A DNA stretch of 64,000 bases from Rhizobium sp. Q54. Lineage in GTDB: Bacteria; Pseudomonadota; Alphaproteobacteria; SMXS01. How positions within the stretch are numbered: position 1 is the stretch's first letter; each line of letters starts with the position of its first letter. A program made the position numbers and the translations under genes. Of the stretch, positions 18,244-46,726 are shown in pieces. The notes below the pieces were generated by a model. That model was given only the letters and a program-made list of their open reading frames with translations, was not told the DNA's origin and did no database searches. The stretch spans positions 1 to 64,000 of the forward strand of contig CAMDTB010000004.1 in NCBI GenBank assembly GCA_945907245.1, given 5' to 3'.

Positions 18244-19263
18244 TCAGGGCGCCAGCAGGATCTTGCACTGGCTGGTGGGCTTGCGCAGCGCCTCGAACGC
18301 GGCCGGGAACTGCTCGAAGGTCAGCACGTCGGTCACCAGCCCTTCCACGTCGACCCGCCCGGCCCCCATCATGTCGACGACGAACTGGAAGTCCGACTTG
18401 TCCTGGGCGATGACGAACTTCATCGACAGTTCCTTGGCCATGGCGAACGCCGGCATGAAAGTGTCCGGCTGGGCGCAGAAGCCGACGACGATGATCTCGC
18501 CGCCATAGGGCGCCAGCTCGGTGCATTTGGCGATCATGCCGGGCACGCCGACGCACTCCATGATCAGCTCCGGCGCCGCGCCTGTCAGCTCGCGGAACTG
18601 GGCTCCAATGTCGCCGGTGGCGTCGACCAGGCCCGTGGCGCCGTAGCGCAGCGCCATCTGCGCCCTGCCCGGATCCAGCTCGCTGACGATGACATGTCGC
18701 GCGCCAAAGAAGCTGCACCATAGGGTCGTGGTCAAGCCGATGGGTCCGGCGCCGATCACCAGCACGTTCTTGCCGGCCAGGCCGTTGCCGATGGCGCGCA
18801 CGCCGTGCAACGAAACGGCCAGCGGCTCGGTCAGCGCGCCGGCCTTCCAGCTCACTGAATCGGGCAGGCGGACAGCCGAATTCAGATGCACGCGGGTGTA
18901 TTCGGCGAAGCCGCCGCCGACGTCGCCGAGGCCGATGATCAGCCTGGTCGCGCACTGCCAGGGCTTGCCAAGCAGGCATGCGGCGCATTTGCCGCAGCCG
19001 ATGAACGGCAGCGCCGTCAACCGGTCGCCTTCCTTCCAGCCGGGCGGCGTGTCCTTGCCGAGAGCGACGATCTCGCCGCAGAACTCGTGGCCCATCACCA
19101 TGCCGCCGGGCTTGCGCCCGTGATCCTCGGTGGCGTGCAGGTCGGTGCCGCAGACACCGCAATGGCGCACGCGGATCACCGCCTCGCCGGCCTGCGGCGC
19201 CGGATCCGGGATGGTCTCGATGGCGAGAGGCTTGCCTACCTCGTGGAAGACGGCGGCTTTCAA
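18244..19263 (-). CDS. Zinc-dependent alcohol dehydrogenase (threonine/sorbitol-dehydrogenase-like MDR)
   Basis: A 339-residue medium-chain dehydrogenase. Catalytic zinc residues are seen in RHCGVCGTDLHATEDH and MGHEFCGEIV, and the structural-zinc cysteines in CGKCAACLLGKPWQC. The NAD(P)-binding Rossmann motif is VLVIGAGPIGL. It would oxidise a secondary or primary alcohol with NAD(P)+. It begins 4 bases after the stop of the upstream P450 gene, so oxidation of a P450-made alcohol is a natural inference. The exact substrate is not known. Confidence 0.93.
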   Translation of the reverse strand: MKAAVFHEVGKPLAIETIPDPAPQAGEAVIRVRHCGVCGTDLHATEDHGRKPGGMVMGHEFCGEIVALGKDTPPGWKEGDRLTALPFIGCGKCAACLLGKPWQCATRLIIGLGDVGGGFAEYTRVHLNSAVRLPDSVSWKAGALTEPLAVSLHGVRAIGNGLAGKNVLVIGAGPIGLTTTLWCSFFGARHVIVSELDPGRAQMALRYGATGLVDATGDIGAQFRELTGAAPELIMECVGVPGMIAKCTELAPYGGEIIVVGFCAQPDTFMPAFAMAKELSMKFVIAQDKSDFQFVVDMMGAGRVDVEGLVTDVLTFEQFPAAFEALRKPTSQCKILLAP

Positions 19264-19267
19264 ATCC

Positions 19268-20518
19268 CTATCCCTTCCTGTCGAATGTGATCCAGAGCTG
19301 CTTCAAGCCGCGCAGGCACAGATGCGGGTGGTGCTCGAAGCTGTTGCCGGCCGGCGCATAGGCCAGGTTGTCGAGCCGCGCGAGAAGCGCCTCGAACGAG
19401 GCGATCATCTCGTAGCGGGCAAGCTGGGCGCCCAGGCAGTGATGGATGCCCGCGCCGAACGCCAGATGGGCGCCGGCGTTGCCGCGCTCGACGTCGAGCT
19501 GGTGCGGACAGGCGAACTTGGCGCCGTCGCGGTTGGCCGCCGCGTAGCGCAGCATCACCCGAGCGCCCTTCGGAATGGCATAGCCGCCCAGCTCTGTGTC
19601 CTGCTTCACGATCCTGAACAGGCCCTGCACGGCGGATTCGAGCCGCAGCGTCTCCTCGACGAAGGTCGGGATGCGCGACGGATCCTCGCGCAGCAGGCGC
19701 TGCTGGTCGGGGTTGTCGATCAGCAGGGTCATGCCGGCGGCGATGGAGTTGGTGGTGGTCTCGTTGCCGGCCACCAGCACCTGCGAGATGATCGACAGCA
19801 GCTCGCCATTGTCGAGCGGCTTGCCATCGTCGTCGCGGACCTCAAGCAGCGCCGACAGCAGGTCGTCGCGCGGTGTTGCGCGGCGCTGATCGAGGGCATC
19901 GACGAAGTATTTCTGGAACTCCAGCAGCTTGGTGGCGCTGTCGATCCATTCGTCATCGGTCAGCATCAGGCCCAGCGGCGCCACGGACGCATCCGACCAG
20001 ATCTTGAACTTCGGCGCGTCGGCGCGCGGCACGCCGAGCTGGTCGGCGATGACGAACAGCGGGACCGGCACGGCGAATTCGTGGATCAGCTCGACCTGCC
20101 CGCGATCGATGAAGCCATCGATCAGCATATTGGCGATCTCGTCCATGTAGGGCTTCATCGCCCGGACGCGCCTTGGCGTGAACGCGTAGTCCACCATCTT
20201 GCGGTAGCGCGTGTGGCTGGGCGGATCATTGGTCACCATGGTGTTGACCTTGGGCCAGCCGCGCTTCTCGATCTCCCTGACCTCGGGCGGCGGTGCGCGC
20301 ATCTCGGCCGGCGCCTGGCTGCCGATGTTGGAGAACACGTCGGTGTTGCGGATCGCCTCCATCAGCAGGTCGTAGCGGCTGACGATGTAGATCTTGAGAA
20401 TCGGGTCGTAATAGACCGGCGCCTGCTCGCGCAGCACGTCGTAATACTCGTAGGGGTTCTCCTGAACCTCCACGCTGGCAAGGGACCGGTCGCCCGGCGC
20501 GCCCGCTATGGCATCCAT
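19268..20518 (-). CDS. Cytochrome P450
   Basis: A soluble bacterial class I P450 of 416 residues. The I-helix oxygen-activation motif is VAGNETTT, the K-helix ExxR is ETLR, and the haem-binding loop is FGAGIHHCLG with the cysteine ligand at about residue 361. It lacks a membrane anchor, so it needs a ferredoxin and reductase; no dedicated ferredoxin gene adjoins it. First gene of the P450-alcohol dehydrogenase-aldolase operon and divergent from another alcohol dehydrogenase gene 137 bases away. Likely hydroxylates a hydrophobic substrate of the catabolic island. Confidence 0.96.
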   Translation of the reverse strand: MDAIAGAPGDRSLASVEVQENPYEYYDVLREQAPVYYDPILKIYIVSRYDLLMEAIRNTDVFSNIGSQAPAEMRAPPPEVREIEKRGWPKVNTMVTNDPPSHTRYRKMVDYAFTPRRVRAMKPYMDEIANMLIDGFIDRGQVELIHEFAVPVPLFVIADQLGVPRADAPKFKIWSDASVAPLGLMLTDDEWIDSATKLLEFQKYFVDALDQRRATPRDDLLSALLEVRDDDGKPLDNGELLSIISQVLVAGNETTTNSIAAGMTLLIDNPDQQRLLREDPSRIPTFVEETLRLESAVQGLFRIVKQDTELGGYAIPKGARVMLRYAAANRDGAKFACPHQLDVERGNAGAHLAFGAGIHHCLGAQLARYEMIASFEALLARLDNLAYAPAGNSFEHHPHLCLRGLKQLWITFDRKG

Positions 20519-20655: not shown

Positions 20656-21750
20656 ATGAAGATTACCGCCGCTATCGCGCAGGGGCCGGACAAGCCCTTC
20701 ACCATCGAGCAAATCGACCTGGACGATCCACGCCCCGACGAGGTGCTGGTGCGCCTGGTTGCCACCGGGGTCTGTCACACCGACATTTTTTTCCGCGACC
20801 TGATGCCACGCCCCGCCGTGCTGGGGCACGAAGGCGCCGGTGTCGTCGAGGCGGTCGGGTCTGACGTCAGGAAAGTGCGGCCGGGCGACCACGTGGTGCT
20901 GTCCTTCGGATCCTGCGGCACCTGCGCGAGTTGCGACGCGGGCGCGCCCTATTACTGCCACCACTTCGGCGCCCACAACGCCAGCGGCCGGCGGCCCGAC
21001 GGCTCCCCGACGCTGACGCGGGGCGGCGAGAAGCTGTTCGGCAACTTCTTCAGCCAGTCGTCCTTCGCCAGCCACGCGCTCGCCAACCAGATCAACGTCG
21101 TCAAGGTACGCCAGGACGCGCCGCTGGAGTTGCTGGGGCCGCTGGGCTGCGGCGTGCAGACCGGCGCGGGTTCGGTGATGAACGGGCTGGAGCCGCTGCC
21201 CGGCGAGGCGCTGGTGATCTTCGGCGCGGGCACCGTCGGCCTGTCGGCGATCATGGCCGCCAATCTGATCGGCTGCGAGCCGATCATCGCCGTAGACCCG
21301 GTCGCCGCCCGCCGCGACATGGCGCTGAGCCTGGGCGCCCATCACGGCATCGACCCGGCGGCGACGGACCCGGTCGCCGAGATCATGCGGCTGACCGGCG
21401 CCGGCGCGCTGCATACGCTCGAATGCACCGGCATTCCCGCGGTGTTCGAGCAGGCAGTGGCCTGCCTCGCGCCGCGCGGAACCTGCGGCCTTATCGGCGC
21501 GCCGCCGCAGGGCAGCAGCGCCTCCATCGACCTGGGCAACCTGCTGGGCAAGGGCATCCGCATCCGCGGCCTCATCGAGGGCGAAAGCCAGATCGACGCG
21601 TTCATCCCGCACCTGGTGGAGCTGTTCCAGGATGGGCTGCTGCCGATCGACCGGCTGGTGACGTTCTACGATCTGGACCAGATCAACGAGGCGGTCGCCG
21701 ACAGTCTGGAAGGCCGGACGATCAAGCCGATCCTGCGGATGCCCCGTTAG
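20656..21750 (+). CDS. Zinc-dependent alcohol dehydrogenase (aryl/benzyl alcohol dehydrogenase-like)
   Basis: A 364-residue MDR of the XylB/class III-like group. The catalytic zinc sites are in ATGVCHTDIFF and LGHEGAGVV, and the structural zinc cysteines in SCGTCASCDAGAPYYC. The cofactor motif is VIFGAGTVGLSAIM. Family members oxidise aryl, allylic or terpene alcohols such as benzyl or perillyl alcohol. The ATG is near a weak purine-rich site. It is divergent from the P450 operon and probably works in the same pathway. Confidence 0.93.
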   Translation: MKITAAIAQGPDKPFTIEQIDLDDPRPDEVLVRLVATGVCHTDIFFRDLMPRPAVLGHEGAGVVEAVGSDVRKVRPGDHVVLSFGSCGTCASCDAGAPYYCHHFGAHNASGRRPDGSPTLTRGGEKLFGNFFSQSSFASHALANQINVVKVRQDAPLELLGPLGCGVQTGAGSVMNGLEPLPGEALVIFGAGTVGLSAIMAANLIGCEPIIAVDPVAARRDMALSLGAHHGIDPAATDPVAEIMRLTGAGALHTLECTGIPAVFEQAVACLAPRGTCGLIGAPPQGSSASIDLGNLLGKGIRIRGLIEGESQIDAFIPHLVELFQDGLLPIDRLVTFYDLDQINEAVADSLEGRTIKPILRMPR

Positions 21751-22925: not shown

Positions 22926-23498
22926 TTACTCGGCCGCGCGCTGGGGCACGAAGGGGCAGTATTCCTCCCTGGCGACCAGATCGAGCACGAAGGCCATCTT
23001 GTTCATGCCGCCCAGGATGGCGCCGACCATGGACAGTTCGACGATGTCGCCGTCGCTGAAGTGCTCCTTCAGCCGGGCATAGAGCGCCGGGGTCAGCGAG
23101 CCGCCCATGTTGGTGAGCGCCAGCTGCTCGGCCAGCGCGATGGCGGCCTTGTCGGCGCCGGAGAACGGGCCGTTCTCGTAGTCCTCCATGGCGTCGAGCT
23201 CGGCCTCGGTGAGACCGGCCTCCTTCGACGACGCGCGGTTGTTGAGGTTGCAGTAATGGCAGCCATGGATCAGCGACAGGCGGTAGCGCACCAGCTCCTT
23301 GTAGCGGCGCGGCACGTCGCCCTCGAAGAACAGCTCCTTGTAGAAGTGCTGGCCGAACATCTTCGACGCCTTGGGCGAATTGGCGAAAACCTCGAGGATG
23401 GTGGTGTCCTCGCAGATCGCCTTCGAGCGGTCCCAGCCGGCCTGCTGCTCGGGCGACAGCTGGTCGCGCGACACCCGGTTCATCAATGTGTTGGTCAT
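22926..23498 (-). CDS. Carboxymuconolactone decarboxylase family (AhpD-like) protein
   Basis: A 190-residue all-helical protein with the CMD/AhpD-like signature KELVRYRLSLIHGCHYCNL, including the redox-capable CxxC (CHYC) and nearby His. Family members are either peroxidase-type thiol proteins or decarboxylases acting on ring-cleavage lactones; the CxxC favours a redox or hydroperoxide role. The ATG at 23498 is preceded by GGGGAGGCGGCC, a strong ribosome site, so the longer frame to 23552 is not used. It is divergent from the epoxide-hydrolase-family gene. Confidence 0.88.
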   Translation of the reverse strand: MTNTLMNRVSRDQLSPEQQAGWDRSKAICEDTTILEVFANSPKASKMFGQHFYKELFFEGDVPRRYKELVRYRLSLIHGCHYCNLNNRASSKEAGLTEAELDAMEDYENGPFSGADKAAIALAEQLALTNMGGSLTPALYARLKEHFSDGDIVELSMVGAILGGMNKMAFVLDLVAREEYCPFVPQRAAE

Positions 23499-23594
23499 GG
23501 CCGCCTCCCCTGACGAATGAACGAAATCTTCAAACTTATGATCACCGAACATATGCTAAGAAGGCCGAGGAAAGCAATTCACGGGGAGGATCGA

Positions 23595-23960
23595 ATGAGC
23601 AACACCCAGATCATCAAGGACTTCATCGCCGCCTGGAACGAGAACGACATCGACAAGGCCTGCGACATGATGTCCGAGGACATCTTCTACCACAATGTGC
23701 CGATGGCCCCGGTCACCGGCCGCGAGGCGTCGCGCGCCATGCTGAAGGCCATGGGCCCGCTGACCGACGTGAACTGGGAGCTGCTCGCCATCGCCGAGAA
23801 CGGCGAGGTGGTGATGACCGAACGGGTCGACCGCATGACCATGGGCGGCAAGAAGGTCGCCATCCCGCTGATGGGCATCTTCCGCATCCGGAACGGCGAG
23901 ATCTACGAGTGGAAGGATTATTTCGACCTGGGTGATTTCCAGCGCCAGATGGCGGGGTAA
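23595..23960 (+). CDS. Limonene-1,2-epoxide hydrolase family protein
   Basis: A 121-residue cone-shaped NTF2-like protein. It matches limonene-1,2-epoxide hydrolase closely from memory of the Rhodococcus enzyme. The active-site Tyr and Asn are in FYHNVP (Tyr32, Asn34), and the catalytic Asp-Arg-Asp triad is Arg77 and Asp79 in TERVDR with Asp108 in EWKDYFDL. The VTGREA and GIFRIRNGEI segments also align. Such enzymes open epoxides with water to trans-diols. The ATG at 23595 follows the strong site GGGGAGGA. The triad is intact, so activity is expected, but the substrate is unproven; terpene-like epoxides are one guess. Confidence 0.85.
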   Translation: MSNTQIIKDFIAAWNENDIDKACDMMSEDIFYHNVPMAPVTGREASRAMLKAMGPLTDVNWELLAIAENGEVVMTERVDRMTMGGKKVAIPLMGIFRIRNGEIYEWKDYFDLGDFQRQMAG

Positions 23961-24943: not shown

Positions 24944-25333
24944 TCAGAAATAGCCGCCGGCACCCGGGATCGCGAACGGATTGCCCGGCTTCTTCTTCGG
25001 CTCGATGAGCTGCACCAGCACGTCCTCGCCCTCGACCTTCACCGGATAGACGGTGATCGGCAGCACCGCCGGCGCGCTCATCGCCTTGCCGGTCTCCAGG
25101 TCGAAATTGGCGCCGTGATGTGGGCAGACGATCTTGCCAGCGCGAATTCGGGCGCCTTCCATCGACTTCTTCTCGTGCGAGCACTGGTTCTCGATGGCCT
25201 TGAACCCGCCATGCGGCATGTGGATGACCAGCACGTTGCGGCCCTCCAGCGGATAGCACCTGCTTTTGCCCGGCTCCACGTCCGTGGTCTTGGCCACGAA
25301 GCGAAACGGAATGTCGGCGGCTTGTGCGGTCAT
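24944..25333 (-). CDS. Rieske [2Fe-2S] ferredoxin
   Basis: A 129-residue soluble Rieske-type ferredoxin. The cluster ligands are in CSHEKKSM (Cys and His) and CPHHGANFD (Cys and His), the standard CxH...CxxH arrangement of dioxygenase ferredoxins. A Pro-rich C-terminal tail of about 20 residues is added. It starts 8 bases after the stop of the third oxygenase alpha subunit and so very probably delivers electrons to one or more of the three oxygenases. A matching ferredoxin reductase is not seen in the window. Confidence 0.93.
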   Translation of the reverse strand: MTAQAADIPFRFVAKTTDVEPGKSRCYPLEGRNVLVIHMPHGGFKAIENQCSHEKKSMEGARIRAGKIVCPHHGANFDLETGKAMSAPAVLPITVYPVKVEGEDVLVQLIEPKKKPGNPFAIPGAGGYF

Positions 25334-25341
25334 CGTCTTCC

Positions 25342-26646
25342 TTAGGCGTCGTTGGCGTAGTCACCGTTGATATAGGCCATCAACGTCTTGTGCATATGGC
25401 GGATCCGGCGTTCCTGGTGGGAAATCCACAACCCCTTGAACGCCGACGAGTTGTTGCCCTTCTGCACATGCGGCAGGTTGACCGAGTCCTGGTCGAGCAC
25501 CAGGCCGAGCGAGCGCTCGCCGTGGTTGACGTGCTCGTGATCGGGCAGCGGCGGGCGCTTCTGGCCGTTCTTGATCCGCGCCCATACCCAGACGTCGTAA
25601 TACATCTTGTTCGGGTCGGTCTCGTGCGGCCGCTGGCGGAACATCATCATCCGGTCGGCGAAGGTGTTCAGCGTCAGGTTCGGGAAGATGAAATAGTGAT
25701 AGTCGTCGGTCAACTGGTCGTCGTTCAGCTCGGAATAGTCGACGCCCAGCTTGTCCTGGTTCTCGCGCTTGAAGATCTGGATCGCCCGGCGCGCCTCGGA
25801 GACGCGGCCGCGGAACTCCTCGGGGTTCATGCCCAGCGCGGTCATCTTGCTGGCGATGATCTCAGGCACCTCCTCCACTTCCTCGCCCAGGCGCGGGCTG
25901 TAGGTGTGGAACGGCACCAGGTAGCGGTTGTGCCGGTCGTAGAGGTCGATCTGCACGTCGACATCGTCGTTGTCGTAGAGCAGTTCGGGGTGGATGCACT
26001 GGACATGGTAGACCTCGTTGAATGCGTCGACCGAGGTCTTCCAGTTGCAGTCCCAGTTGATGGTGACGTTCATCACCATCGCCATCTTCTCGAAATGATA
26101 CGGGCCGAGGTGCTCCGGGATGATGCCGAGATAGTCCATCAGCGGCTCGGCGTCCGGGTTCAGGTTGAACCACACGAAGCCGCCCCAGGTGCCGGTGTTC
26201 ACCGGCTTCAGCGACAGCTGGTCCTTGGGACAGCCCTGGGTGAAGTCCTGCTCGTCGGGGACGTTCACCAGCCTGCCGGTCAGGTCGTATTCCCAGAAAT
26301 GGTACGCGCATTGCAGGGTGCGCGAGTTGCCCATCTTGTCGAACTTGACCTGGTTTCCGCGGTGGTTGCAGACATTGTAGAAGGTCCGCGGCACGCCGTC
26401 CTCGCCGCGCACGATCAGCAGGCTCTCGGTGCCGATCTCGGTGGTGATGTAGTCGCCGACATCGGGGATCTCCTCCTCGCGGCAGCCCATCAGCCAGGTC
26501 TTGGTCCACATCCGCTCCCACTCGAGTTGCATGAACTCGGGCGAGGTGTAGCGTTCCTTCGGAATCAGCGCATTGCCGAGATCGGGTTCGGGCGACTTCT
26601 CCGCCGGCGTACCCGTGCTTTCCTTCACCCTGATGACCGCGACCAT
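25342..26646 (-). CDS. Rieske non-haem iron oxygenase, alpha subunit (third of three)
   Basis: A 434-residue ring-hydroxylating oxygenase alpha subunit. The Rieske cluster ligands are Cys93 and His95 (CNHRG) and Cys113 and His116 (CAYH). The mononuclear iron site is in the FNEVYHVQCIHPE segment, whose two His are 5 residues apart. No beta-subunit gene is present, so an alpha-only trimer is likely. The ATG at 26646 aligns with the starts of the two paralogues; the frame reaches 26718 without extra homology. It is separated by 83 bases from the second copy and by 8 from the ferredoxin. A short insertion before the C-terminal PDHEHVNHGERSLGL differs among copies. Confidence 0.95.
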   Translation of the reverse strand: MVAVIRVKESTGTPAEKSPEPDLGNALIPKERYTSPEFMQLEWERMWTKTWLMGCREEEIPDVGDYITTEIGTESLLIVRGEDGVPRTFYNVCNHRGNQVKFDKMGNSRTLQCAYHFWEYDLTGRLVNVPDEQDFTQGCPKDQLSLKPVNTGTWGGFVWFNLNPDAEPLMDYLGIIPEHLGPYHFEKMAMVMNVTINWDCNWKTSVDAFNEVYHVQCIHPELLYDNDDVDVQIDLYDRHNRYLVPFHTYSPRLGEEVEEVPEIIASKMTALGMNPEEFRGRVSEARRAIQIFKRENQDKLGVDYSELNDDQLTDDYHYFIFPNLTLNTFADRMMMFRQRPHETDPNKMYYDVWVWARIKNGQKRPPLPDHEHVNHGERSLGLVLDQDSVNLPHVQKGNNSSAFKGLWISHQERRIRHMHKTLMAYINGDYANDA

Positions 26647-26729
26647 TCGAGAACTCCAAATCCTGAATAGAGAGCGCCCTTTTTGCCGTCTGGGACGGCG
26701 CGAGGCAACCTCATTCATACACGACTTTT

Positions 26730-28013
26730 TTATATCGCGATGTATTTCATCAAGGTTTCATGCATATGCCGGATGCGGCGCTCGATGTGGCTGATCCAAA
26801 GGCCCCTGTAAGCCTCGGAATGCATGCCCTTCTGGATATGCGGCAGATTGACCGAATCCTGGTCGAGCACCAGCCCCAGGGACCGGTCGCCATGCCTGAT
26901 GTGCTCATGGTCTGGCACCGGCGGGCGCGCCTCGCCCTTCGGCAGCCGGCGCATGATCGACAGGTCGAAATACATCCGGTCCGGATCGGTCTCGTGCGGC
27001 CGCTGGCGGAACATCATCAGCCGGTCTGCGAAGATGTTCATCGTGATGTTGGGAAAGATGAAATAGTGGTAGTCGTCCGACAGCTGGTCGTCGCTGAGCC
27101 GGTTGTAGTCGTAGCCCAGCGCGTCCGCCGTCTCGCGCTTGCGGCGCTGGAAGGCGCGGCGCACCTCGTCCACCCTGCCCCGGAAATCCGCCGGCTCCAT
27201 GCCCAGTGCGACCATGTCGGCAGCCATGATGTCCGGCACGTCCTGCAACGCCCCAACCCGCGGCGCCGGCCGCTGGAACGGGATCAGGTAGCGGCTGTGC
27301 CGGTCGTAGAGGTCGATCTGCACGTCCACGTCGTCATGCAGGTAGGACAACTCCGGATGGATGCAGGGCGTGTGATAATACTCGTTGAACGCATCGACCG
27401 AGGCCTTCCAGTTGCAGTCCCAGTCGATGGTGAGGTTCATCATCATCGGCATCTTCTCGAACTCGTAGGGATCGAGATGCTCGGGGATGATGCCCAGATA
27501 GTCCCGCAGCGCCCCGGCGTCCGGATTCAGCGTGTACCAGACGAAGCCGCCCCAGGTGTCGGTGCGGACCGCTTTCAGGCTCAGCTGGTCCCTGGGGCAG
27601 CCCTGGGTAAAGTCCTGCTCGTCGGGCACGCCGATCAGCTGGCCGGTCAGATCGTATTCCCAGAAGTGGTACGCGCACTGCAGGGTCCGCGAGTTGCCGC
27701 ATTCGTCGAACTTCACCTGGTTTCCGCGGTGGTTGCAGACATTGTAGAAGGTCCGCGCCTTGCCGTCTTCGCCGCGCACGATCAGTAGCGATTCCGTGCC
27801 GATCGTCGTGGTGACGTAGTCGCCGGTCTCCGGGATTTCGTCCTCGCGGCAGCCGACCAGCCAGACCTTCGTCCACATCCGCTCCCATTCGAGCTTCATG
27901 AACTCGGGCGAGATGTAGCGGTCCTTCGGGATGATCGCGTGGCCCATGTCGGGCTCGGGCGCCTTGGCGACCGGCGTGCCGCCCGGCGTCTCGATACGCG
28001 TAATGGCGTTCAT
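26730..28013 (-). CDS. Rieske non-haem iron oxygenase, alpha subunit (second of three)
   Basis: A 427-residue paralogue of the flanking oxygenases. The Rieske ligands are at 93, 95, 113 and 116 and the iron-site segment is FNEYYHTPCIHPE. It is the most divergent copy: the residues around the substrate pocket differ (for example YYHTPC where the others have VYHVQC). The C-terminus ends MKYIAI and lacks the NG(E/D)YANDA tail of both neighbours. The ATG at 28013 is chosen; an in-frame TTG lies two codons upstream. A strong terminator precedes it, so it may need its own promoter or depend on read-through. Confidence 0.94.
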   Translation of the reverse strand: MNAITRIETPGGTPVAKAPEPDMGHAIIPKDRYISPEFMKLEWERMWTKVWLVGCREDEIPETGDYVTTTIGTESLLIVRGEDGKARTFYNVCNHRGNQVKFDECGNSRTLQCAYHFWEYDLTGQLIGVPDEQDFTQGCPRDQLSLKAVRTDTWGGFVWYTLNPDAGALRDYLGIIPEHLDPYEFEKMPMMMNLTIDWDCNWKASVDAFNEYYHTPCIHPELSYLHDDVDVQIDLYDRHSRYLIPFQRPAPRVGALQDVPDIMAADMVALGMEPADFRGRVDEVRRAFQRRKRETADALGYDYNRLSDDQLSDDYHYFIFPNITMNIFADRLMMFRQRPHETDPDRMYFDLSIMRRLPKGEARPPVPDHEHIRHGDRSLGLVLDQDSVNLPHIQKGMHSEAYRGLWISHIERRIRHMHETLMKYIAI

Positions 28014-28050
28014 GAACAATCTCCCCGATCAGTTCCATGACCACTGTCGC

Positions 28051-28087
28051 AAAAAAACAGGCGGCCGACCAGATGGCCGACCGCCTG
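28051..28087 (-). terminator. Intrinsic terminator after the first Rieske oxygenase gene
   Basis: Read on the minus strand, CAGGCGGTCGGCC, the loop ATCT and GGTCGGCCGCCTG form a 13-bp stem with two G-U wobbles. It is followed directly by seven T residues. This is a textbook Rho-independent terminator. It lies 25 bases after the stop codon of the gene at 28113-29447 and 38 bases before the start of the next oxygenase gene. Confidence 0.9.
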
Positions 28088-28112
28088 AATTTTCGATGGA
28101 TCAGCGCCGCGC

Positions 28113-29447
28113 TTACGCGTCGTTGGCGTACTCGCCGTTGATGTAGTCCATCAGGGTCTTGTGCATGTGCCGGATGCGGCGCTCCTGGCCGGAAATCCAC
28201 AGACCCTTGTAGGCCGACGAATTCATGCCCTTCTGCACGTGCGGCAGGTTGACCGAATCCTGGTCGAGCACGAGACCGAGCGAACGCTCGCCATGCTTGA
28301 CGTGCTCGTGGTCGGGCAGCGGCGGACCCGCGTCGCCCATGAAGTTGGCGGCGATCGCCTTGCCGGTCTTGGGAACGGTGACGTACATGGTCACGTCGTA
28401 ATACATCTTGTTCGGGTCGGTCTCGTGCGGCCGCTGGCGGAACATCATCATCGACTCGGCCATCACGTTCATCGTGATGTTCGGGAAGATGAAGTAGTGA
28501 TAGTCGTCCGACAGCTGATCGTCGTTGAACTCGGAGTAGTCGATTCCGATCGTCTCGGCGTTCGCGCGCTTGTACTCCTGCACCGCCCGGCGGATCTCGG
28601 GAACGCGGCCATGGAACTCATCCGGGTTCATGCCGATGGCCCGCAGTTCGTCGGCCAAGCCTTCCGGCACCTCCTGCAGATCCTCGCCGAGGCGCGGGCT
28701 GTAGGTCTTGAACGGCACCAGGTAGCGGTTGTGGCGCTCGTACAGGTCGATCTGAATGTCCACGTCGTCGATCGTGTAGGACAACTCCGGATGGATGCAC
28801 TGGACGTGATAGACCTCGTTGAACGCATCGACCGAGGTCTTCCAGTTGCAATCCCAGTCGACGGTGACGTTCATCACCATCGCCATGTTCTCGAAGTGAT
28901 ACGGATTCAGGTGCTGCGGAACCATGCCGAGATAGTCCATCAGCGGCTCGGCATCCGGGTTCAGGTTGAACCACACGAAGCCGCCCCATGTATCGGTCTT
29001 CACCGCCTTGAGGCTGAGCTGGTCCTTCGGGCAGCCCTGGGTGAAGTCCTGCTCGTCCGGCACGCTGATCAGCTTGCCGGTCAGGTCGTATTCCCAGAAG
29101 TGATAGGCGCATTGCAGCGTCCGGGAGTTGCCGCACTCGTCGAACTTCACCTGGTTGCCGCGGTGGTTGCAGACATTGTAGAAGGTCCGCGCCTTGCCGT
29201 CCTCGCCGCGCACGATCAGCAGCGATTCATTGCCGATCTCAGTGGTGAGGTAGTCTCCGGTCTCGGGAATCTCCTGCTCGCGGCAGCCGATCAGCCAGAC
29301 CTTGGTCCACATGCGGTCCCATTCCAGCTGCATGAAATCCTTGGAGATATAGCGCTCCTTCGGAATGATCTCGCTACCCAGATTCGGCTCGGGCGCCTTC
29401 TCGGCCGGCGTATAGACGCTTTCCTTGACCCGCGTAATCGCAACCAT
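28113..29447 (-). CDS. Rieske non-haem iron oxygenase, alpha subunit (first of three)
   Basis: A 444-residue alpha subunit and the longest of the three paralogues. Rieske ligands are Cys93, His95, Cys113 and His116; the iron site is FNEVYHVQCIHPE at about 209-221 with His214 and His219. An insertion of about 10 residues near position 380 (TGKAIAANFMGDAG) is absent from the others. The N-terminal part (KAPEPNLGSEIIPKERYIS) is nearly the same in all three. It follows the enoyl-CoA hydratase gene by 44 bases and is followed by a strong terminator, so it likely belongs with the aldehyde dehydrogenase and hydratase genes upstream. Confidence 0.95.
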   Translation of the reverse strand: MVAITRVKESVYTPAEKAPEPNLGSEIIPKERYISKDFMQLEWDRMWTKVWLIGCREQEIPETGDYLTTEIGNESLLIVRGEDGKARTFYNVCNHRGNQVKFDECGNSRTLQCAYHFWEYDLTGKLISVPDEQDFTQGCPKDQLSLKAVKTDTWGGFVWFNLNPDAEPLMDYLGMVPQHLNPYHFENMAMVMNVTVDWDCNWKTSVDAFNEVYHVQCIHPELSYTIDDVDIQIDLYERHNRYLVPFKTYSPRLGEDLQEVPEGLADELRAIGMNPDEFHGRVPEIRRAVQEYKRANAETIGIDYSEFNDDQLSDDYHYFIFPNITMNVMAESMMMFRQRPHETDPNKMYYDVTMYVTVPKTGKAIAANFMGDAGPPLPDHEHVKHGERSLGLVLDQDSVNLPHVQKGMNSSAYKGLWISGQERRIRHMHKTLMDYINGEYANDA

Positions 29448-29491: not shown

Positions 29492-30337
29492 TTACTCGGC
29501 AGCCTTGATTTCTTCCCTGAACTTCTCGGGCACGCCTTCGCGGCGGACCGCGCGCGTTTCCATCTCGTAGTTATGCGCATGGCACATATGGTGCAGGGCA
29601 ATGACCGTATCCATGGTCGACCGCTGGCCCATATTGTCCTGCGCGACGTTTACCGCCTGTTTGGTTAACTTAAGCGCGAACGCCGGTTTTTCCGCAATTC
29701 TTTTCGCCATGGCAAGACTGAATTCCTCCAGCTCCGGCCGCGGCACCACGTGGTTGACCATGCCGAGGCGGTGCGCTTCCTGCGCGCTCCACCAGTCGGC
29801 GGTGAACAGCAGCTCCTTGGCCTTGCGGATGCCCAGCTCGTACGGGTGGTTGAAGTACTCCACGCCGCAGACGCCCATGGCGACGACCGGGTCCATGAAG
29901 GCGGCATCGTCGCTGGCGATGATGATGTCGCACACCCAGGCCAGCATCAGGCCGCCGGCTATGCACTTGCCCTGCACCATGGCGATCGTCGGCTTGGGGA
30001 AGTCGCGCCAGCGGCGGCACATGCCCAGGAACACTTCCTGCTCGAAGCTGTAGCGGCTGTGGACGCCGCCTTCGGTCGAGGGCACCCAGGTGCCGATCGC
30101 CGTGTCCTCGCGCGGGCCGAAGCCGCGCAGATCGTGGCCGGACGAGAAGTGCGGCCCCTCGCCGCCGAACAGGACCACCTTGATGTCCTCGTCCCGCGCG
30201 GCGAGATCGAAGCAGGCGTTCATGTCATAGGTCAGCCGGTTGTTCTGCGCGTTCCGCGCCGCCGGCCGGTTCTGCATGATCTTGGCGATGTGCGGCGCCA
30301 CGATCTCATAGGTCGCCGTCTCGAATTCCTTCTTCAT
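29492..30337 (-). CDS. Enoyl-CoA hydratase/isomerase family protein
   Basis: A crotonase-fold protein of 281 residues. The first oxyanion-hole region is FGGEGPHFSSGHDLRGFG and the second is GKCIAGGLMLAWVCD, both typical of the family. Members hydrate enoyl-CoA or isomerise, cleave or dehalogenate CoA thioesters. The ATG at 30337 starts at the real N-terminus; the open frame continues upstream into the aldehyde dehydrogenase region without crotonase similarity. It sits between aldehyde dehydrogenase (46 bases upstream) and the first oxygenase (44 bases downstream). Confidence 0.92.
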   Translation of the reverse strand: MKKEFETATYEIVAPHIAKIMQNRPAARNAQNNRLTYDMNACFDLAARDEDIKVVLFGGEGPHFSSGHDLRGFGPREDTAIGTWVPSTEGGVHSRYSFEQEVFLGMCRRWRDFPKPTIAMVQGKCIAGGLMLAWVCDIIIASDDAAFMDPVVAMGVCGVEYFNHPYELGIRKAKELLFTADWWSAQEAHRLGMVNHVVPRPELEEFSLAMAKRIAEKPAFALKLTKQAVNVAQDNMGQRSTMDTVIALHHMCHAHNYEMETRAVRREGVPEKFREEIKAAE

Positions 30338-30383
30338 TCCCCGAACTCCTATCAGTGATGGCGCCGCCCGCCAAAGATCCCCG

Positions 30384-31886
30384 TCAGAGGGCGACGGCCA
30401 CGGATTTAACCTCAGTATAGGCCTCGATGCCGTCGAAGCCCATCTCCCGGCCCCAGCCGGATTCCTTGTAGCCGCCGAACGGCAGCGACATGTCGGACGC
30501 GCCGTGGCAGTTGATCCAGACGCTGCCCGCGCGGATCTGCGCCGCCAGCCGATGCGCCCGGCTGATGTCGCGGGTCCAGATGCTGGCCGCCAGGCCATAG
30601 CGGGTGTCGTTGGCCAGCCGCGCGACCTCGTCCAGGTCCGCCACGGGCTGCACCGTGATCACCGGCCCGAAGATCTCCTCGCGATTGACGCGCATGTTCT
30701 GGGTGGTGTTGACCAGGATGGTCGGCTCGATGAAGTAGCCGGAATTGCCGACCCGCTTGCCGCCGCTGGCGATCTCGGCGCCCTCGTCGAGGCCGGCCTG
30801 GATCATGGACGACACCTTGTCGTGCTGCTCCTGCGAGACCAGCGGGCCCATGCGGGTGTCGGCCGCCATGCCGGGGCCGACCTTGAAGCTCTGCGCCGCG
30901 GCGGACAGGCCCTCGACGACACTGTCGAACGCCGACTTCTCCACATAGAGGCGGGTGGCGGCGATGCAGACCTGGCCGCTGTTGAAGAACGCGGCGTTGG
31001 CGAGGCCGGGCACGGTGCGCTTCATGTCGGCGTCGGCGAAGACGATGGTCGGCGACTTGCCGCCCAGCTCCAGCGTAACCTTCTTCAGATTGCTCTGCGC
31101 GGCCGAGGCGGCGATGATCCGGCCCACTTCGGTCGAGCCGGTGAAGGCGACCTTGTCCACGTCGGGATGCGACGAGATCGCCGCGCCGGCGGTGTGGCCG
31201 AAACCGGTGACGATGTTGACGACGCCGGCCGGGAAGCCGGCCTCGACGATCAGTTCGCCCAGCTTGATGGCGGTCAGCGGCGTCTGCTCGGCGGGCTTGA
31301 GCACCACGGTGCAGCCGGTCGCCAGCGCCGGCGCCAGTTTCCACGACGCCATCAGCAGCGGGAAGTTCCAAGGCACGATCTGGCCGCAGACCCCGATCGG
31401 CTCGCGGCGCACATAGGCGTGGAACTGCTGGAACGGGTTGGACGGCGTGACCGTCTTGCCCTCGATCTTGGTGCAGTAGCCGGCGTAGTAGCGGAACGCC
31501 TCGGCCGACGACATGACGTCGACCATCTTGGATAGCGAGAACGGCTTGCCGTTGTCGAGGGTCTCCAGCTCGGCCAGTTCCTCCAGGTTCTCCTCGATCA
31601 GGTCGGCCAGCTTCCAGATCAGCCGGGCGCGCTTGGACGGCGGCATGGCGGCCCAGTCCGGCGTTTCGAAGGCGCGGCGTGCGGCCTTCACCGCCTCGTC
31701 CACGTCGGCCTTGTCGGACGCGGCGCAGCGCGCGATGACGCCGCCGGTCGCCGGGTTGATGACGTCGAAGGTCTCGCCGCTGCGGGCGTCGACCCACTCG
31801 TTGTTGATCAGGTTCTTGCGGTTCTGGGCGAGAAACGCGCCAACCTTCGGGTTGGTCGCCGCCAGCTCGAGCGCTGCATCCGCCAT
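30384..31886 (-). CDS. NAD(P)-dependent aldehyde dehydrogenase
   Basis: A 500-residue class I/II-like aldehyde dehydrogenase. It has VPWNFPLLMASWKLAPAL for cofactor binding, FTGSTEVGR, the catalytic Glu motif TLELGGKSP, and the catalytic Cys in FNSGQVCIAATR. The C-terminal PFGGYKESGWGREMG is also conserved. It oxidises an aldehyde to the acid, which in this island could feed the acyl-CoA ligases. The ATG at 31886 follows the GGAGA ribosome site; the upstream GTG is not needed. It is probably the first gene of the minus-strand operon that leads to the first Rieske oxygenase. Confidence 0.95.
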   Translation of the reverse strand: MADAALELAATNPKVGAFLAQNRKNLINNEWVDARSGETFDVINPATGGVIARCAASDKADVDEAVKAARRAFETPDWAAMPPSKRARLIWKLADLIEENLEELAELETLDNGKPFSLSKMVDVMSSAEAFRYYAGYCTKIEGKTVTPSNPFQQFHAYVRREPIGVCGQIVPWNFPLLMASWKLAPALATGCTVVLKPAEQTPLTAIKLGELIVEAGFPAGVVNIVTGFGHTAGAAISSHPDVDKVAFTGSTEVGRIIAASAAQSNLKKVTLELGGKSPTIVFADADMKRTVPGLANAAFFNSGQVCIAATRLYVEKSAFDSVVEGLSAAAQSFKVGPGMAADTRMGPLVSQEQHDKVSSMIQAGLDEGAEIASGGKRVGNSGYFIEPTILVNTTQNMRVNREEIFGPVITVQPVADLDEVARLANDTRYGLAASIWTRDISRAHRLAAQIRAGSVWINCHGASDMSLPFGGYKESGWGREMGFDGIEAYTEVKSVAVAL

Positions 31887-32119
31887 CGTCTTCTCCACGT
31901 TCCGGGGAAGGCTGTCGCTTCCCTCTGCCTATGTCTGGAAAAGCCGGCGTGGGTCTTCCCTCCCCACCCTGCCTCGCGCGGCAGTCTACGGCCCGGTACG
32001 GCCAAATTCCATATTTATCGCCTCGCCGGCTTGCTAATGTAGCCGCCGGTTTCCTTGGCAAACTAGGCCATGGAGAACAAAAGTCAATCGTGAATGGAAA
32101 TTTAAGGGGAGATCGTTCA

Positions 32120-32665: not shown

Positions 32666-34231
32666 CTACCCCACCCGCCTCACATGCCCTGCCCAATAGG
32701 GCTCCCGCAACTCCTTCTTCAGCAGCTTGCCTGAGGGGTTGCGCGGCAGTACGTCGATGAAGTCCACCGACTTGGGCACCTTGTAGCCGCCGATGCGGGT
32801 GCGGGCGAAGGCGATAAGCTCCTGCTCGGTCAGCGACGCGCCCGGCTCCAGCACCACGACGGCCTTCACCTCCTCGCCCCAGCGCTCGCTGGGCACGCCG
32901 ATTACCGCCACGTCGGAGATCGCCGGATGGTGCGACAGGGCGCTTTCCACCTCGGCGGGATAGATGTTCTCGCCGCCCGAGACGATCATGTCCTTCACCC
33001 GGTCGTGGATGTAGATGAAGCCCTCGTCGTCCATGTAGCCGGCGTCGCCGGAATGATACCAGCCGCCCCGCATGGCCTGCGCCGTCGCTTCCGGCATGTT
33101 CCAGTAGCCCTTCATCAGCCACGGCGCCTGGATCAGGATCTCGCCCACCTGACCGCGCGGCAACTCGATGTCGCTCTCGTCGCCGATGATCACCCGCGAG
33201 CCGGGGAACGGGATGCCGCAGCTGCGCAGCCGCGGCGAGCCCGCCACATGCTGTTCGGGCGGCAGATAGGTGATGGTCCCGCTCGCCTCGGTCATGCCGT
33301 AGCGCTGCACGAAGGGACAGTTGAAGGTGGCCATGGCGCGCACCAGCACGTCCTCGGGGATCGGCGACGCGCCGTAATGCACCACGCGGACATGGGAGAA
33401 ATCGGCGCCCCTCGCCGCCTCGTGCAGCAGCATCGTGCGCAGCACGGCTGGCACCACGAACACGTTGTTGACCTTATGCCGCTGGATCGCGTCGATGATC
33501 GCGCCAGCCTCGGCCTGCGCCAGGATCACCTGCGTCGCGCCGTGGTAGAACCCTTGGAAGCCCCAGCCCGTGCCGCCGACGTGGAACACCGGCATGGGGA
33601 TCATCGCCACTTCCTCGTCGCTCCACTGCGCCCAGGCCTCGCCGGTGGCGAGATAGCCGAGGCGCTGGGCGATCAGGCCGAGATGCATGATCTGCACGCC
33701 CTTGGGCAGGCCGGTTGTGCCGGAGGTGTAGAGCTGGACGCAGACGTCCTCGGGCACCGACGGGACCATGGGATCAACGTCGGTCTGCCGGTCGCGCCAG
33801 GCATCGTAGCTTTCGAGGCCGTCCTGCGGATTGCCCATGACGATGACCTTGCGCACGCTGGGCGATGCGATCCGGTGCACCAGGCCGAGATATTCCGGCT
33901 CGACGAACAGGATTTCCGCCTGGGCGTCACCGACGATGTATTCGATCTCCGGCGCCGCCAGCCGCGAGTTGATGGCGACCATCACCACGTTCGCCTTGGC
34001 CGCGCCGAACAGCAGCTGGAAATACAGGTCCGAGTTCTTGCCCAGATAGCCGATCCGCCCCTGCGGCCCGACGCCCTCGGCGATCAGGCCGGTCGCGACG
34101 CGGGTACAGTACCGGTCGAAGTCCACCCACGACACGAAGCGGTCCTCGAAGATGGTGCATGTCCGCGACGGGCGCAGGCGCGCCCAATGGCGCGGAACGT
34201 CGGCGAGCACGTTGATGCCGTCGATGAGCAT
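32666..34231 (-). CDS. Acyl-CoA synthetase (AMP-forming), copy 1
   Basis: A 521-residue ANL-superfamily ligase that activates a carboxylic acid with ATP and CoA. The P-loop is YTSGTTGLPKGV, motif A5 is YGMTEASGTIT, the YHSGDAGYMDDEGFIYIHDR hinge region follows, and the C-terminal catalytic Lys is in PRNPSGKLLKKEL. Most residues match those of the gene at 34466-36034, showing a tandem duplication. It is isolated from neighbours by two long inverted repeats. The substrate could be the acid made by the aldehyde dehydrogenase; medium-chain or cyclic acids are possible. Confidence 0.94.
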   Translation of the reverse strand: MLIDGINVLADVPRHWARLRPSRTCTIFEDRFVSWVDFDRYCTRVATGLIAEGVGPQGRIGYLGKNSDLYFQLLFGAAKANVVMVAINSRLAAPEIEYIVGDAQAEILFVEPEYLGLVHRIASPSVRKVIVMGNPQDGLESYDAWRDRQTDVDPMVPSVPEDVCVQLYTSGTTGLPKGVQIMHLGLIAQRLGYLATGEAWAQWSDEEVAMIPMPVFHVGGTGWGFQGFYHGATQVILAQAEAGAIIDAIQRHKVNNVFVVPAVLRTMLLHEAARGADFSHVRVVHYGASPIPEDVLVRAMATFNCPFVQRYGMTEASGTITYLPPEQHVAGSPRLRSCGIPFPGSRVIIGDESDIELPRGQVGEILIQAPWLMKGYWNMPEATAQAMRGGWYHSGDAGYMDDEGFIYIHDRVKDMIVSGGENIYPAEVESALSHHPAISDVAVIGVPSERWGEEVKAVVVLEPGASLTEQELIAFARTRIGGYKVPKSVDFIDVLPRNPSGKLLKKELREPYWAGHVRRVG

Positions 34232-34303
34232 CGAGGGGGTTCCTGCGGGAGGTTAGCGTCGGTTCCTAATACGGGGAGGTCAGCGTTCCAGCAATAAAAT
34301 CCT

Positions 34304-34451
34304 TGTCATCCCGGCGAAAGCCGGGACCCAGATGGGGAAAGAGCTGCGCGTTCTCCACCCGCCCGATCCACCGAAAAAATTCCTCGTTGTCGAAGCGCAC
34401 AATCGCCTCGTGGTGGCCCCGTTCTGGGTCCCGGCTTTCGCCGGGATGACA
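34304..34451. repeat. Perfect 28-bp inverted repeat with 92-base spacer, family C
   Basis: Arms at 34304-34331 and 34424-34451 are exact reverse complements over 28 bases; each contains CCCGGCGAAAGCCGGGACCC or its complement. The spacer of 92 bases has no gene. The element lies between the two paralogous acyl-CoA ligase genes, and its arms are themselves palindromic. This looks like two copies of one small element in opposite orientation. Confidence 0.93.
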
Positions 34452-34465
34452 GAGTTTTTGGAGGT

Positions 34466-36034
34466 TTACCCCACCCGCCGCTCACGCCCAGCCCAATACG
34501 GCTCGCGAAGTTCCTTCTTCAGCAGCTTGCCGGACGGGTTGCGCGGCAGGCTGTCGACGAAATCCACGCTCTTGGGCGTCTTGAAGCCGGCGATCTGGGT
34601 GCGGGCGAAGGCGATCAGCTCGTCCTCGGTGACATGCGCGCCCTTCTCCTTCACCACGACCGCCTTGACCTCCTCGCCCCAGCGGTCGCTGGGGACGCCG
34701 ATCACCGCGATGTCGGCGACGGCGGGATGCTTCGACAGGGCGCTTTCGACCTCGGCGGGATAGATGTTCTCGCCGCCCGAGACGATCATGTCCTTCACCC
34801 GGTCGTAGACGTAGATGAAGCCCTCGTCGTCCATGTAGCCGGCGTCGCCCGAATGATACCAGCCGTCCTTCACCGCCTCGGCCGTCGCTTCCGGCATGTT
34901 CCAGTAGCCCTTCATGATCCCGGGGGCGCGGATCATGATCTCGCCGACCTGGCCCGGCGGCTGGGCGTTGCCGGCGGCGTCGCCGATGATGATCTCGATG
35001 CCGTGGAACGGGATGCCGCAGCTGCGCAGCTTGGTCGAGCCGGCCACATGTACCTCAGGCGGCAGGAAGGTGACCGATCCGCTGGTCTCGGTCATGCCGT
35101 AGAGCTGGACGAACGGGCATTTGAAGGTGGCGAGCGCGCGCACCAGAACGTCCTCCGGGATCGGCGACGCGCCGTAAAGCACCACGCGGACATGAGAGAA
35201 ATCGGCGGTCTTCGACGCCTCGTGCTGCAGCATGAACTGCAGCACGGCGGGCACCACGAACACCTTGGTGACCCGGTATTTCTGGATCGTCTCGATGATC
35301 AGCCCCGGCTCGGCCTGCCCCAGGATGACCTGGGTCGAGCCGTTGTAGAAGCCCTGGAAGCCCCAGCCGGTACCGCCGACATGGAAAACCGGCATGGGAA
35401 TCATGATGACGTCGTCGTCGTGCCACTTGCTCCACTCGCCGGCGATCTCGTCGCCATAGCGCTGGACGATGAAGCCGCGGTTGGGCAGCTGCACGCCCTT
35501 GGGACGGCCGGTAGTGCCGGAGGTGTACAGCTGGACGCAGATGTCCTCGCTGTCGACGGGCAGCATGGGATCGGCGGCTGACTGGCCGTCGCGCCATGAG
35601 ACGTATTCCTCCCAGCCGTGGCCGCGTCCGGACATGGCCACGTAGAGCGTCACCGTTGCCAGCCGCTCGCGGATCTCACCGATCAGGCCGAAGAATTCCT
35701 CCTCGACGAACAGCACCTCGATGCGCGCGTCGTTGACGATGTACTCGACCTCCGGCGGCGCCAGGCGCCAGTTGATGCCGACCATCACCGTGTTGGACTT
35801 GGCGGCGCCGAACAGCAGCTGAAAGTACAGATCCGAGTTCTTCCCAAGGTAGGCGACCCGCGCCTGCGGCTTCACGCCGGCCTCGATGATTCCGTTGGCG
35901 ACCTGCGTGGCATGGCGGTCGAAGTCAGCCCAGGAAACTACCCGGTCCTCGAACACGGTGGCTGCCTTGCCAGGACGGTTCGCGGCCCAGTGGCGCGGAA
36001 TGTCGGCGAGCACCTGTAGCTCAGCGATCGGCAT
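34466..36034 (-). CDS. Acyl-CoA synthetase (AMP-forming), copy 2
   Basis: A 522-residue ANL ligase, closely related to the previous copy. It has YTSGTTGRPKGV, YGMTETSGSVTF, YHSGDAGYMDDEGFIYVYDR and PRNPSGKLLKKELREPYW. Differences cluster in the middle region that shapes the acyl pocket, so the two may act on different intermediates. It ends 234 bases upstream of copy 1 across the family C repeat. The next gene upstream on the same strand begins beyond a 98-base gap after the second P450, so a shared transcript with that P450 is possible. Confidence 0.94.
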   Translation of the reverse strand: MPIAELQVLADIPRHWAANRPGKAATVFEDRVVSWADFDRHATQVANGIIEAGVKPQARVAYLGKNSDLYFQLLFGAAKSNTVMVGINWRLAPPEVEYIVNDARIEVLFVEEEFFGLIGEIRERLATVTLYVAMSGRGHGWEEYVSWRDGQSAADPMLPVDSEDICVQLYTSGTTGRPKGVQLPNRGFIVQRYGDEIAGEWSKWHDDDVIMIPMPVFHVGGTGWGFQGFYNGSTQVILGQAEPGLIIETIQKYRVTKVFVVPAVLQFMLQHEASKTADFSHVRVVLYGASPIPEDVLVRALATFKCPFVQLYGMTETSGSVTFLPPEVHVAGSTKLRSCGIPFHGIEIIIGDAAGNAQPPGQVGEIMIRAPGIMKGYWNMPEATAEAVKDGWYHSGDAGYMDDEGFIYVYDRVKDMIVSGGENIYPAEVESALSKHPAVADIAVIGVPSDRWGEEVKAVVVKEKGAHVTEDELIAFARTQIAGFKTPKSVDFVDSLPRNPSGKLLKKELREPYWAGRERRVG

Positions 36035-39435: not shown

Positions 39436-39580
39436 GTCCCGCTTCCCTTCATTCATGACTGTTGTTCCCGGTCGGGAACGTAGCACGAAAGCGGCGGTCC
39501 ACAAGGCGAATTGGCTTCCATTCCCGCTTACCCTGTTGCCATACTCGCGCCGCGCAGGAACCACGAAACGGGAGAAAATC

Positions 39581-42059: not shown

Positions 42060-42143
42060 TGGTCTTCCCCTTGGATGGTATCGGTTCGGCTGCAACGCTA
42101 GAACAAGCCGCAGGACGGTGCAACCGTCCGCCGTCGATTTCCA

Positions 42144-45706: not shown

Positions 45707-45737
45707 GGAACTTACCTTTCTCTCTTTCCTGATATAT

Positions 45738-46628: not shown

Positions 46629-46726
46629 GGCATTCTCCCCGAAATGGCTTCCACTCGTCCCCGCGGCGGATACTATAGCCAACCGAGAAATGAATGCATG
46701 CCGGATTCAGCGGCGGGGAGATGCAC

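What the first reader, a model, noticed from the sequence alone, without database searches (positions are those of the whole stretch)
24944..29447. Three tandem paralogous Rieske oxygenase alpha subunits with one shared ferredoxin
Three genes encode alpha-only Rieske oxygenases with all cluster and iron ligands kept at the same positions (93, 95, 113, 116). They differ in the active-site segment (VYHVQC versus YYHTPC), in an insertion near residue 380 and at the C-terminus. One Rieske ferredoxin follows 8 bases after the last copy; no beta subunit or reductase is present. Tandem triplication with intact catalytic sites suggests divergence for different substrates or successive steps, served by one electron carrier.
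Basis: partly seen in the sequence, partly recalled or inferred. Interest (0 to 1): 0.62.

Follow-up and report, generated by a model that had tools for sequence, protein, structure and literature searches.

The report
Tandem Rieske oxygenases beside one ferredoxin
Three related oxygen-inserting enzymes sit next to one electron-carrier gene in a conserved degradation cluster of an uncultured alphaproteobacterial family whose genomes each carry 27 to 58 enzymes of this kind; the genes are an ordinary kind, but their number and the few electron carriers found for them are unusual.

Summary
R1, R2 and R3 are intact alpha-only Rieske oxygenases (73-79% identical) on the minus strand, and a Rieske ferredoxin starts 8 nt after R3. 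All metal ligands are kept. The reading needs three corrections.

(1) Not a fresh triplication. Each copy is its own orthogroup across species, with dispersed paralogs in between; a clade of the three alone is rejected (AU p = 0.0004). The array holds one, two or three oxygenases in different family members, inside an otherwise conserved catabolic cluster.

(2) Probably not one operon. A 13-bp terminator-like hairpin conserved in five species separates R1 from what follows.

(3) The ferredoxin may matter beyond the triplet. The genome has about 50 such oxygenases, no beta subunit over cut-off, one oxygenase-linked Rieske ferredoxin (this one; sister genomes have one to three), one divergent small Rieske protein, one BphA4-type reductase and no FNR-type reductase domain.

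Function: alpha-only oxygenases with a Glu bridge (as in CntA), probably fed by reductase then Rieske ferredoxin (as in CARDO), diverged mainly in the catalytic half, hence probably different substrates or steps. Substrate unknown. Comparable copy numbers are published for SAR202 Chloroflexota. New member of a known kind, moderate interest.

The parts
28113..29447 (-). R1: alpha-only Rieske oxygenase, 444 aa, with a recent 10-residue loop insertion around 361-370
28058..28087 (-). Intrinsic-terminator-like hairpin (13-bp stem, loop ATCT, T7 tail) between R1 and R2; conserved in four species with the triplet and in G002 between R1 and R3
   Evidence: folding z-score -7.0
26730..28013 (-). R2: alpha-only Rieske oxygenase, 427 aa, the most divergent copy (V215T next to the iron ligand H214; lacks the C-terminal tail)
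25342..26646 (-). R3: alpha-only Rieske oxygenase, 434 aa (upstream in-frame ATG at 26718 is less likely)
24944..25333 (-). Rieske-type ferredoxin, 129 aa, 8 nt after R3; the only oxygenase-linked Rieske ferredoxin gene found in this genome
24072..24824 (-). ThuA-family protein next to the ferredoxin; ThuA also lies near the homologous oxygenase in several other proteobacteria
29492..30346 (-). Enoyl-CoA hydratase family (PRK08290 subfamily) directly upstream of R1; listed ORF runs to 30598, probable start ATG 30346
30384..31898 (-). Aldehyde dehydrogenase (PF00171)
32666..34231 (-). Acyl-CoA ligase a
34466..36034 (-). Acyl-CoA ligase b, a tandem paralog of ligase a; conserved across the family
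36133..37368 (-). Cytochrome P450 b
38425..39435 (-). MDR-type NADPH oxidoreductase (ADH_N_2/ADH_zinc_N)
19268..20518 (-). Cytochrome P450 a
17472..18227 (-). HpcH/HpaI-family aldolase
18244..19263 (-). Zinc alcohol dehydrogenase 1
20656..21750 (+). Zinc alcohol dehydrogenase 2
22926..23507 (-). Carboxymuconolactone-decarboxylase/AhpD-like protein
23517..23960 (+). Limonene-epoxide-hydrolase/SnoaL-like protein

Best explanation
R1, R2 and R3 are catalytically intact alpha-only (probably alpha3) Rieske non-heme iron oxygenases of a catabolic gene cluster conserved across an uncultured alphaproteobacterial family. Proposed electron path: NAD(P)H to the single BphA4-type reductase encoded elsewhere in the genome, then the Rieske ferredoxin beside R3, then the Rieske cluster of one subunit, across Glu211 to the mononuclear iron (H214/H219/D397) of the neighbouring subunit, where the substrate is oxygenated. 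The copies keep a nearly constant Rieske half (ferredoxin docking) and differ in parts of the catalytic half, so they probably act on different substrates or successive intermediates of a pathway that also uses P450s, acyl-CoA ligases, an enoyl-CoA hydratase-type enzyme, dehydrogenases and an aldolase. The three copies come from older duplications within a lineage-specific family, and R1 is probably transcribed separately from, or in excess of, R2-R3-ferredoxin because of a terminator between them. Shown: gene structure, ligands, purifying selection, synteny, phylogeny, the hairpin, genome-wide component counts. Inferred: oligomeric state, electron path, substrate divergence, terminator function. 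Unknown: the substrate.
For: Domains and intact ligands in all copies. dN/dS 0.06-0.20 for R1, R2, R3 and ferredoxin. Oxygenase-ferredoxin-ThuA order and most neighbours conserved across three genera. R1, R2 and R3 each an orthogroup with UFBoot 96-100. Models with pLDDT 92.5 and 94.4; the closest solved fold is CntA, an alpha3 Rieske monooxygenase, with the same E-x2-H-x4-H spacing (E205/H208/H213, PMC7948474). No beta subunit over cut-off in G000. One oxygenase-linked Rieske ferredoxin gene, one Reductase_C protein, no PF00970 in G000. Rieske part 84-87% versus catalytic part 67-77% identical. Hairpin z = -7.0, conserved.
Against: No expression or activity data exist. An adrenodoxin-type ferredoxin lies directly downstream of the only BphA4-type reductase, ten Fer2-domain matches exist in the genome, and a divergent small Rieske protein is encoded on C32, so this ferredoxin may not be the sole donor. 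Deep nodes among the seven orthogroups have only modest support. Third-position identity in the Rieske half is as high between paralogs as between orthologs in some windows, so gene conversion could distort the tree and could itself explain the conserved half. The assembly is a 136-contig draft and some oxygenases are cut at contig ends.
Confidence: 0.62

Rival explanations
1. Dosage/redundancy: the three copies have the same activity and are kept for amount or for expression under different conditions, with no substrate divergence.
For: 73-79% identity and identical ligands; the terminator between R1 and R2 would let expression differ; G002 does without R2.
Against: Each copy has been kept as a separate orthogroup under purifying selection, with divergence concentrated at residues 245-308 and 346-380 of the catalytic half.
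Confidence: 0.2
2. The general electron donor for these oxygenases is the adrenodoxin-type [2Fe-2S] ferredoxin encoded next to the single BphA4-type reductase (as with RedA2/Fdx1 of the dioxin dioxygenase), and the Rieske ferredoxin serves only part of the triplet or another partner.
For: Reductase and Fer2 ferredoxin are adjacent on C67. RW1 dioxin dioxygenase precedent: RedA2 plus Fdx1 (PMC3425912). About 50 oxygenases but only one oxygenase-linked Rieske ferredoxin gene in G000.
Against: The Rieske ferredoxin follows an oxygenase directly in all nine family genomes in which it was found, and an oxygenase-ferredoxin pair also occurs in SAR202-type Chloroflexota.
Confidence: 0.3
3. They are quaternary-ammonium (Group V, CntA/GbcA/Stc2-like) Rieske monooxygenases.
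For: Best fold match is CntA, then Stc2-type enzymes; best NCBIfam match is GbcA (148 bits); bridging Glu as in CntA.
Against: 148 bits against a GbcA cut-off of 670. The Group V cysteine pair (CntA C206/C209) is V212/V215 in R1 and R3. No PF00970 domain in the genome, while CntA uses an FMN reductase with a ferredoxin centre. The cluster is of CoA/P450 type.
Confidence: 0.04
4. Recent local tandem triplication, as first proposed.
For: Head-to-tail arrangement; one clade specific to the family.
Against: AU test p = 0.0004 against R1+R2+R3 as a clade; each copy groups with its orthologs in other species.
Confidence: 0.08

Closest known systems
Carbazole 1,9a-dioxygenase (CARDO) type systems: alpha-only oxygenase plus Rieske ferredoxin
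   Same: No beta subunit and a separate Rieske ferredoxin; the CARDO ferredoxin 3gce is the second-best PDB match to this ferredoxin.
   Different: The oxygenases are only remotely similar to CarAa (22.8 bits); the reductase is not in the cluster; substrate unknown.
CntA / Stc2 / GbcA (Group V) Rieske monooxygenases
   Same: Closest solved fold; alpha-only; Glu bridge and His spacing as in CntA.
   Different: 18-19% identity in the structural alignment; Group V cysteine pair absent; no FNR-type reductase domain in the genome.
Expanded ring-hydroxylating dioxygenase paralogs of SAR202 Chloroflexota (group VII and OSU_TB11), PMC6946804
   Same: 1 to 62 alpha copies per group VII genome with 1 to 3 beta subunits. 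Homologs at 55-60% identity occur in Dehalococcoidia/Tepidiformaceae MAGs, with a ferredoxin-like gene just downstream in those checked.
   Different: Another phylum. Here the expansion is in an alphaproteobacterial family, with no beta subunit over cut-off in G000 and a conserved ECH/P450/ThuA cluster around the array.
Sphingobium yanoikuyae B1 oxygenases sharing one ferredoxin and one reductase (PMC1847435)
   Same: Several terminal Rieske oxygenases served by a single electron donor pair.
   Different: Here the oxygenases lack beta subunits, and there are about 50 of them per reductase; sharing is inferred, not shown.
Catabolic plasmid clusters of Niveispirillum, Terrarubrum, Paracoccus, Sphingobium and Croceicoccus holding a 54-55% identical oxygenase (function unknown)
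   Same: Oxygenase with ThuA in four of the five clusters and a small Rieske protein in two, next to CoA-dependent enzymes.
   Different: Single oxygenase of this subfamily; different partners (MaoC, CoA transferase, thiolase with OB-fold protein, 2-oxoacid dehydrogenase in some).

Membership tests
Rieske non-heme iron ring-hydroxylating oxygenase, alpha subunit | Rieske domain (C-x-H ... C-x2-H) plus PF00848 catalytic domain above cut-off | tested here: met
   ligands
Rieske non-heme iron ring-hydroxylating oxygenase, alpha subunit | 2-His-1-carboxylate iron site with bridging acidic residue | tested here: met
   E211, H214, H219, D397 invariant in 66 sequences
Rieske non-heme iron ring-hydroxylating oxygenase, alpha subunit | Oxygenase activity with NAD(P)H and an electron chain | not testable with these tools
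   needs purified proteins
alpha3beta3 dioxygenases (NDO/BphA type) | Beta subunit (PF00866) | tested here: not met
   none over cut-off in G000 or in the other relatives searched except one 27.5-bit summed match in G005
Group V quaternary-ammonium monooxygenases (CntA/GbcA/Stc2) | Cysteine pair flanking the bridging Glu and iron His (CntA C206/C209) | tested here: not met
   V212/V215 in R1 and R3, Y212/T215 in R2
Group V quaternary-ammonium monooxygenases (CntA/GbcA/Stc2) | NCBIfam GbcA equivalog cut-off (670 bits) | tested here: not met
   148 bits at best
CARDO-like alpha3 plus Rieske ferredoxin plus reductase | Alpha-only oxygenase with adjacent Rieske ferredoxin | tested here: met
CARDO-like alpha3 plus Rieske ferredoxin plus reductase | Dedicated reductase gene in the cluster | tested here: not met
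   the only Reductase_C protein is on contig C67
CARDO-like alpha3 plus Rieske ferredoxin plus reductase | Ferredoxin reduces the oxygenase | not testable with these tools
   needs purified proteins
Recent tandem triplication | R1, R2 and R3 are each other's closest relatives | tested here: not met
   AU p = 0.0004

The most novel reading that the evidence does not exclude
A whole alphaproteobacterial family runs about 30 to 60 beta-less, mostly Glu-bridged Rieske oxygenases per 2-4 Mb genome from one central redox hub (one BphA4-type reductase, one to three Rieske ferredoxins and/or the Fer2 ferredoxin beside the reductase). The ferredoxin beside this array is a core part of that hub, so oxygenase diversification has been uncoupled from electron supply, in parallel to SAR202 Chloroflexota.
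Probability: 0.35. Interest if true: 0.6.

Novelty: new member of a known kind. Interest (0 to 1): 0.42.

Why it matters
The triplet itself is a usable test bed: three natural variants of one oxygenase with nearly the same Rieske half and different catalytic halves, next to one ferredoxin, for asking what sets substrate choice. The wider pattern (27-58 alpha-only Rieske oxygenases per genome throughout an uncultured family, against mostly zero to a few in other Alphaproteobacteria) points to a lineage specialised in oxidising many different organic molecules and makes it testable how far a single electron-supply system can be shared.

Tried and rejected
Recent tandem triplication: rejected by the AU test. 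Loop insertion and YYHTPC as paralog-defining features: they vary within orthogroups. Quaternary-ammonium monooxygenase: cysteine pair and reductase type do not fit. dS as an age measure for the duplications: unreliable because GC3 is about 0.9 and third positions look saturated. Literature searches for a described oxygenase/ThuA cluster gave nothing relevant. A bile-acid (Chol11) lead from memory was not supported by anything found (abstracts only). ThuA gave no sequence match in the PDB. One query in the synteny script (labelled SDR, 39580-40345) was translated in the wrong frame (one search found no family); its matches are disregarded.
Full report
OBSERVATION. R1-R3 match PF00355 and PF00848; the ferredoxin matches Rieske models only. 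R2 and R3 are 73% and 79% identical to R1. The cluster ligands C93, H95, C113, H116, the iron ligands H214, H219, D397 and the bridging Glu211 (R1 numbering) are invariant in an alignment of 66 homologs. The insertion lies around 361-370 of R1, not near 380; it is missing in the R1 orthologs of two related species and falls in the worst-predicted part of the model.

HISTORY. The window lies in a 3.34-Mb draft genome (G000, 98% complete) of an uncultured alphaproteobacterial genus. Searches of relatives found the same array in sister species. In a tree of 46 family sequences with four Chloroflexota outgroups, R1, R2 and R3 orthologs each form a clade (UFBoot/SH-aLRT 100/98, 99/96 and 96/92), and copies located elsewhere in the genomes fall between them; holding R1+R2+R3 together is rejected (AU p = 0.0004), as is R1+R3 (p = 0.0018). 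Deep nodes are only modestly supported, and gene conversion in the Rieske half cannot be excluded. The array has one oxygenase in G008 and G009, two in G002 and G007 and three in G000, G001, G003 and G005; G006 shows R2 and R3 at a contig end. The ECH gene upstream, and ferredoxin and ThuA downstream, are kept throughout except where a contig ends, and most other cluster genes recur. dN/dS between species is 0.06-0.20 for all three oxygenases and the ferredoxin.

TRANSCRIPTION. Between R1 and R2 lies a hairpin of 13 pairs followed by seven T (28058-28087, minus strand). The segment folds at -34.6 kcal/mol, z = -7.0 against shuffles, and the hairpin is present at the same place in G001, G003 and G005 and between R1 and R3 in G002. 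In 632 kb of this genome the same motif occurs only here. The simplest reading is an intrinsic terminator that separates ECH-R1 from R2-R3-ferredoxin or sets their ratio. Its activity has not been tested, and no sigma-70-like promoter was found in the region.

GENOME CONTEXT. G000 has 50 PF00848 matches; its family ranges from 27 to 58 per genome. Of 289 sampled genomes of the class, 141 have no match and most of the rest have few; outside this family only one sampled genome (G159, 62 first-look candidates) reaches comparable numbers. In G000 I recovered 54 oxygenase-like ORFs, several cut by contig ends; every one in which the sites can be read keeps the ligands, with Glu as bridging residue in most and Asp in a few. 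No beta subunit reaches cut-off in G000. Apart from the ferredoxin of this array, the stand-alone Rieske matches in G000 are a likely cytochrome bc1 Rieske protein (C3), a divergent small Rieske protein on C32 that is not near an oxygenase and fragments at contig ends. Sister genomes have up to two further ferredoxin-like matches. One Reductase_C (BphA4-type) protein per genome was found in nine of ten family members, and no PF00970 domain in G000. That reductase is followed by an adrenodoxin-like Fer2 ferredoxin. The genome has ten Fer2 matches in all.

HOW IT PROBABLY WORKS. The R1 and R2 models have mean pLDDT 92.5 and 94.4. The closest solved fold is CntA, an alpha3 enzyme in which Glu205 mediates electron transfer between subunits (PMC7948474); the spacing of E211, H214 and H219 is the same. 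CntA itself is not the family: the cysteine pair is absent and the reductase type is missing. The ferredoxin is most like biphenyl-dioxygenase- and CARDO-type Rieske ferredoxins. The proposed chain, reductase to Rieske ferredoxin to oxygenase, is inference. Identity among the three copies is 84-87% in the Rieske part and 67-77% in the catalytic part, lowest at 245-308 and 346-380, as expected for a common docking face and different substrates. The cluster around them (two P450s, two acyl-CoA ligases, ECH, aldehyde and alcohol dehydrogenases, HpcH/HpaI aldolase, LEH/SnoaL, CMD) is of a catabolic type, but the substrate cannot be named from sequence. Oxygenases 54-55% identical to R1 lie in plasmid clusters of cultured alphaproteobacteria, four of five with ThuA nearby; their function is not known to me either.

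KNOWN OR NEW. Rieske oxygenase paralog expansions of this size are published for SAR202 Chloroflexota (1-62 alpha copies, 1-3 beta copies per group VII genome; PMC6946804), and sharing of one donor pair by several oxygenases for Sphingobium yanoikuyae B1 (PMC1847435). Here a different lineage shows the same trend, without beta subunits over cut-off in this genome. I file the genes as new members of a known kind and the genome-wide pattern as the more interesting part.

Noticed in passing
G000 contigs C49, C7 (34590-38576), C36, C114: Other tandem runs of three or four Rieske oxygenase genes in the same genome, so this array is one of several.
   Followed up: partly
window 32666-36034: Two tandem acyl-CoA ligase paralogs in the same cluster; ligase b is conserved across the family, ligase a was seen only in the genus.
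   Followed up: partly
window 41151-42095: A second ThuA-family gene, about 12 kb from the array's right edge.
   Followed up: no
G159 (another alphaproteobacterial family, 3.6 Mb): 62 first-look PF00848 candidates: possibly an independent Rieske oxygenase expansion; that assembly has 7% contamination.
   Followed up: no
L117 1103-2763 (G000 contig C67): The single BphA4-type reductase of the genome directly followed by an adrenodoxin-like Fer2 ferredoxin.
   Followed up: partly
L182 8899-9270 (G000 contig C32): A divergent small Rieske protein that is not next to an oxygenase; similar-sized matches occur in G002 and G005.
   Followed up: no
window 25345-29447, codons about 50-250 of R1-R3: Third-position identity between paralogs is as high as between orthologs in parts of the Rieske half, a hint of gene conversion.
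   Followed up: partly
window 44915-47458: A further catabolic group: enoyl-CoA hydratase, luciferase-like monooxygenase, dienelactone hydrolase.
   Followed up: no
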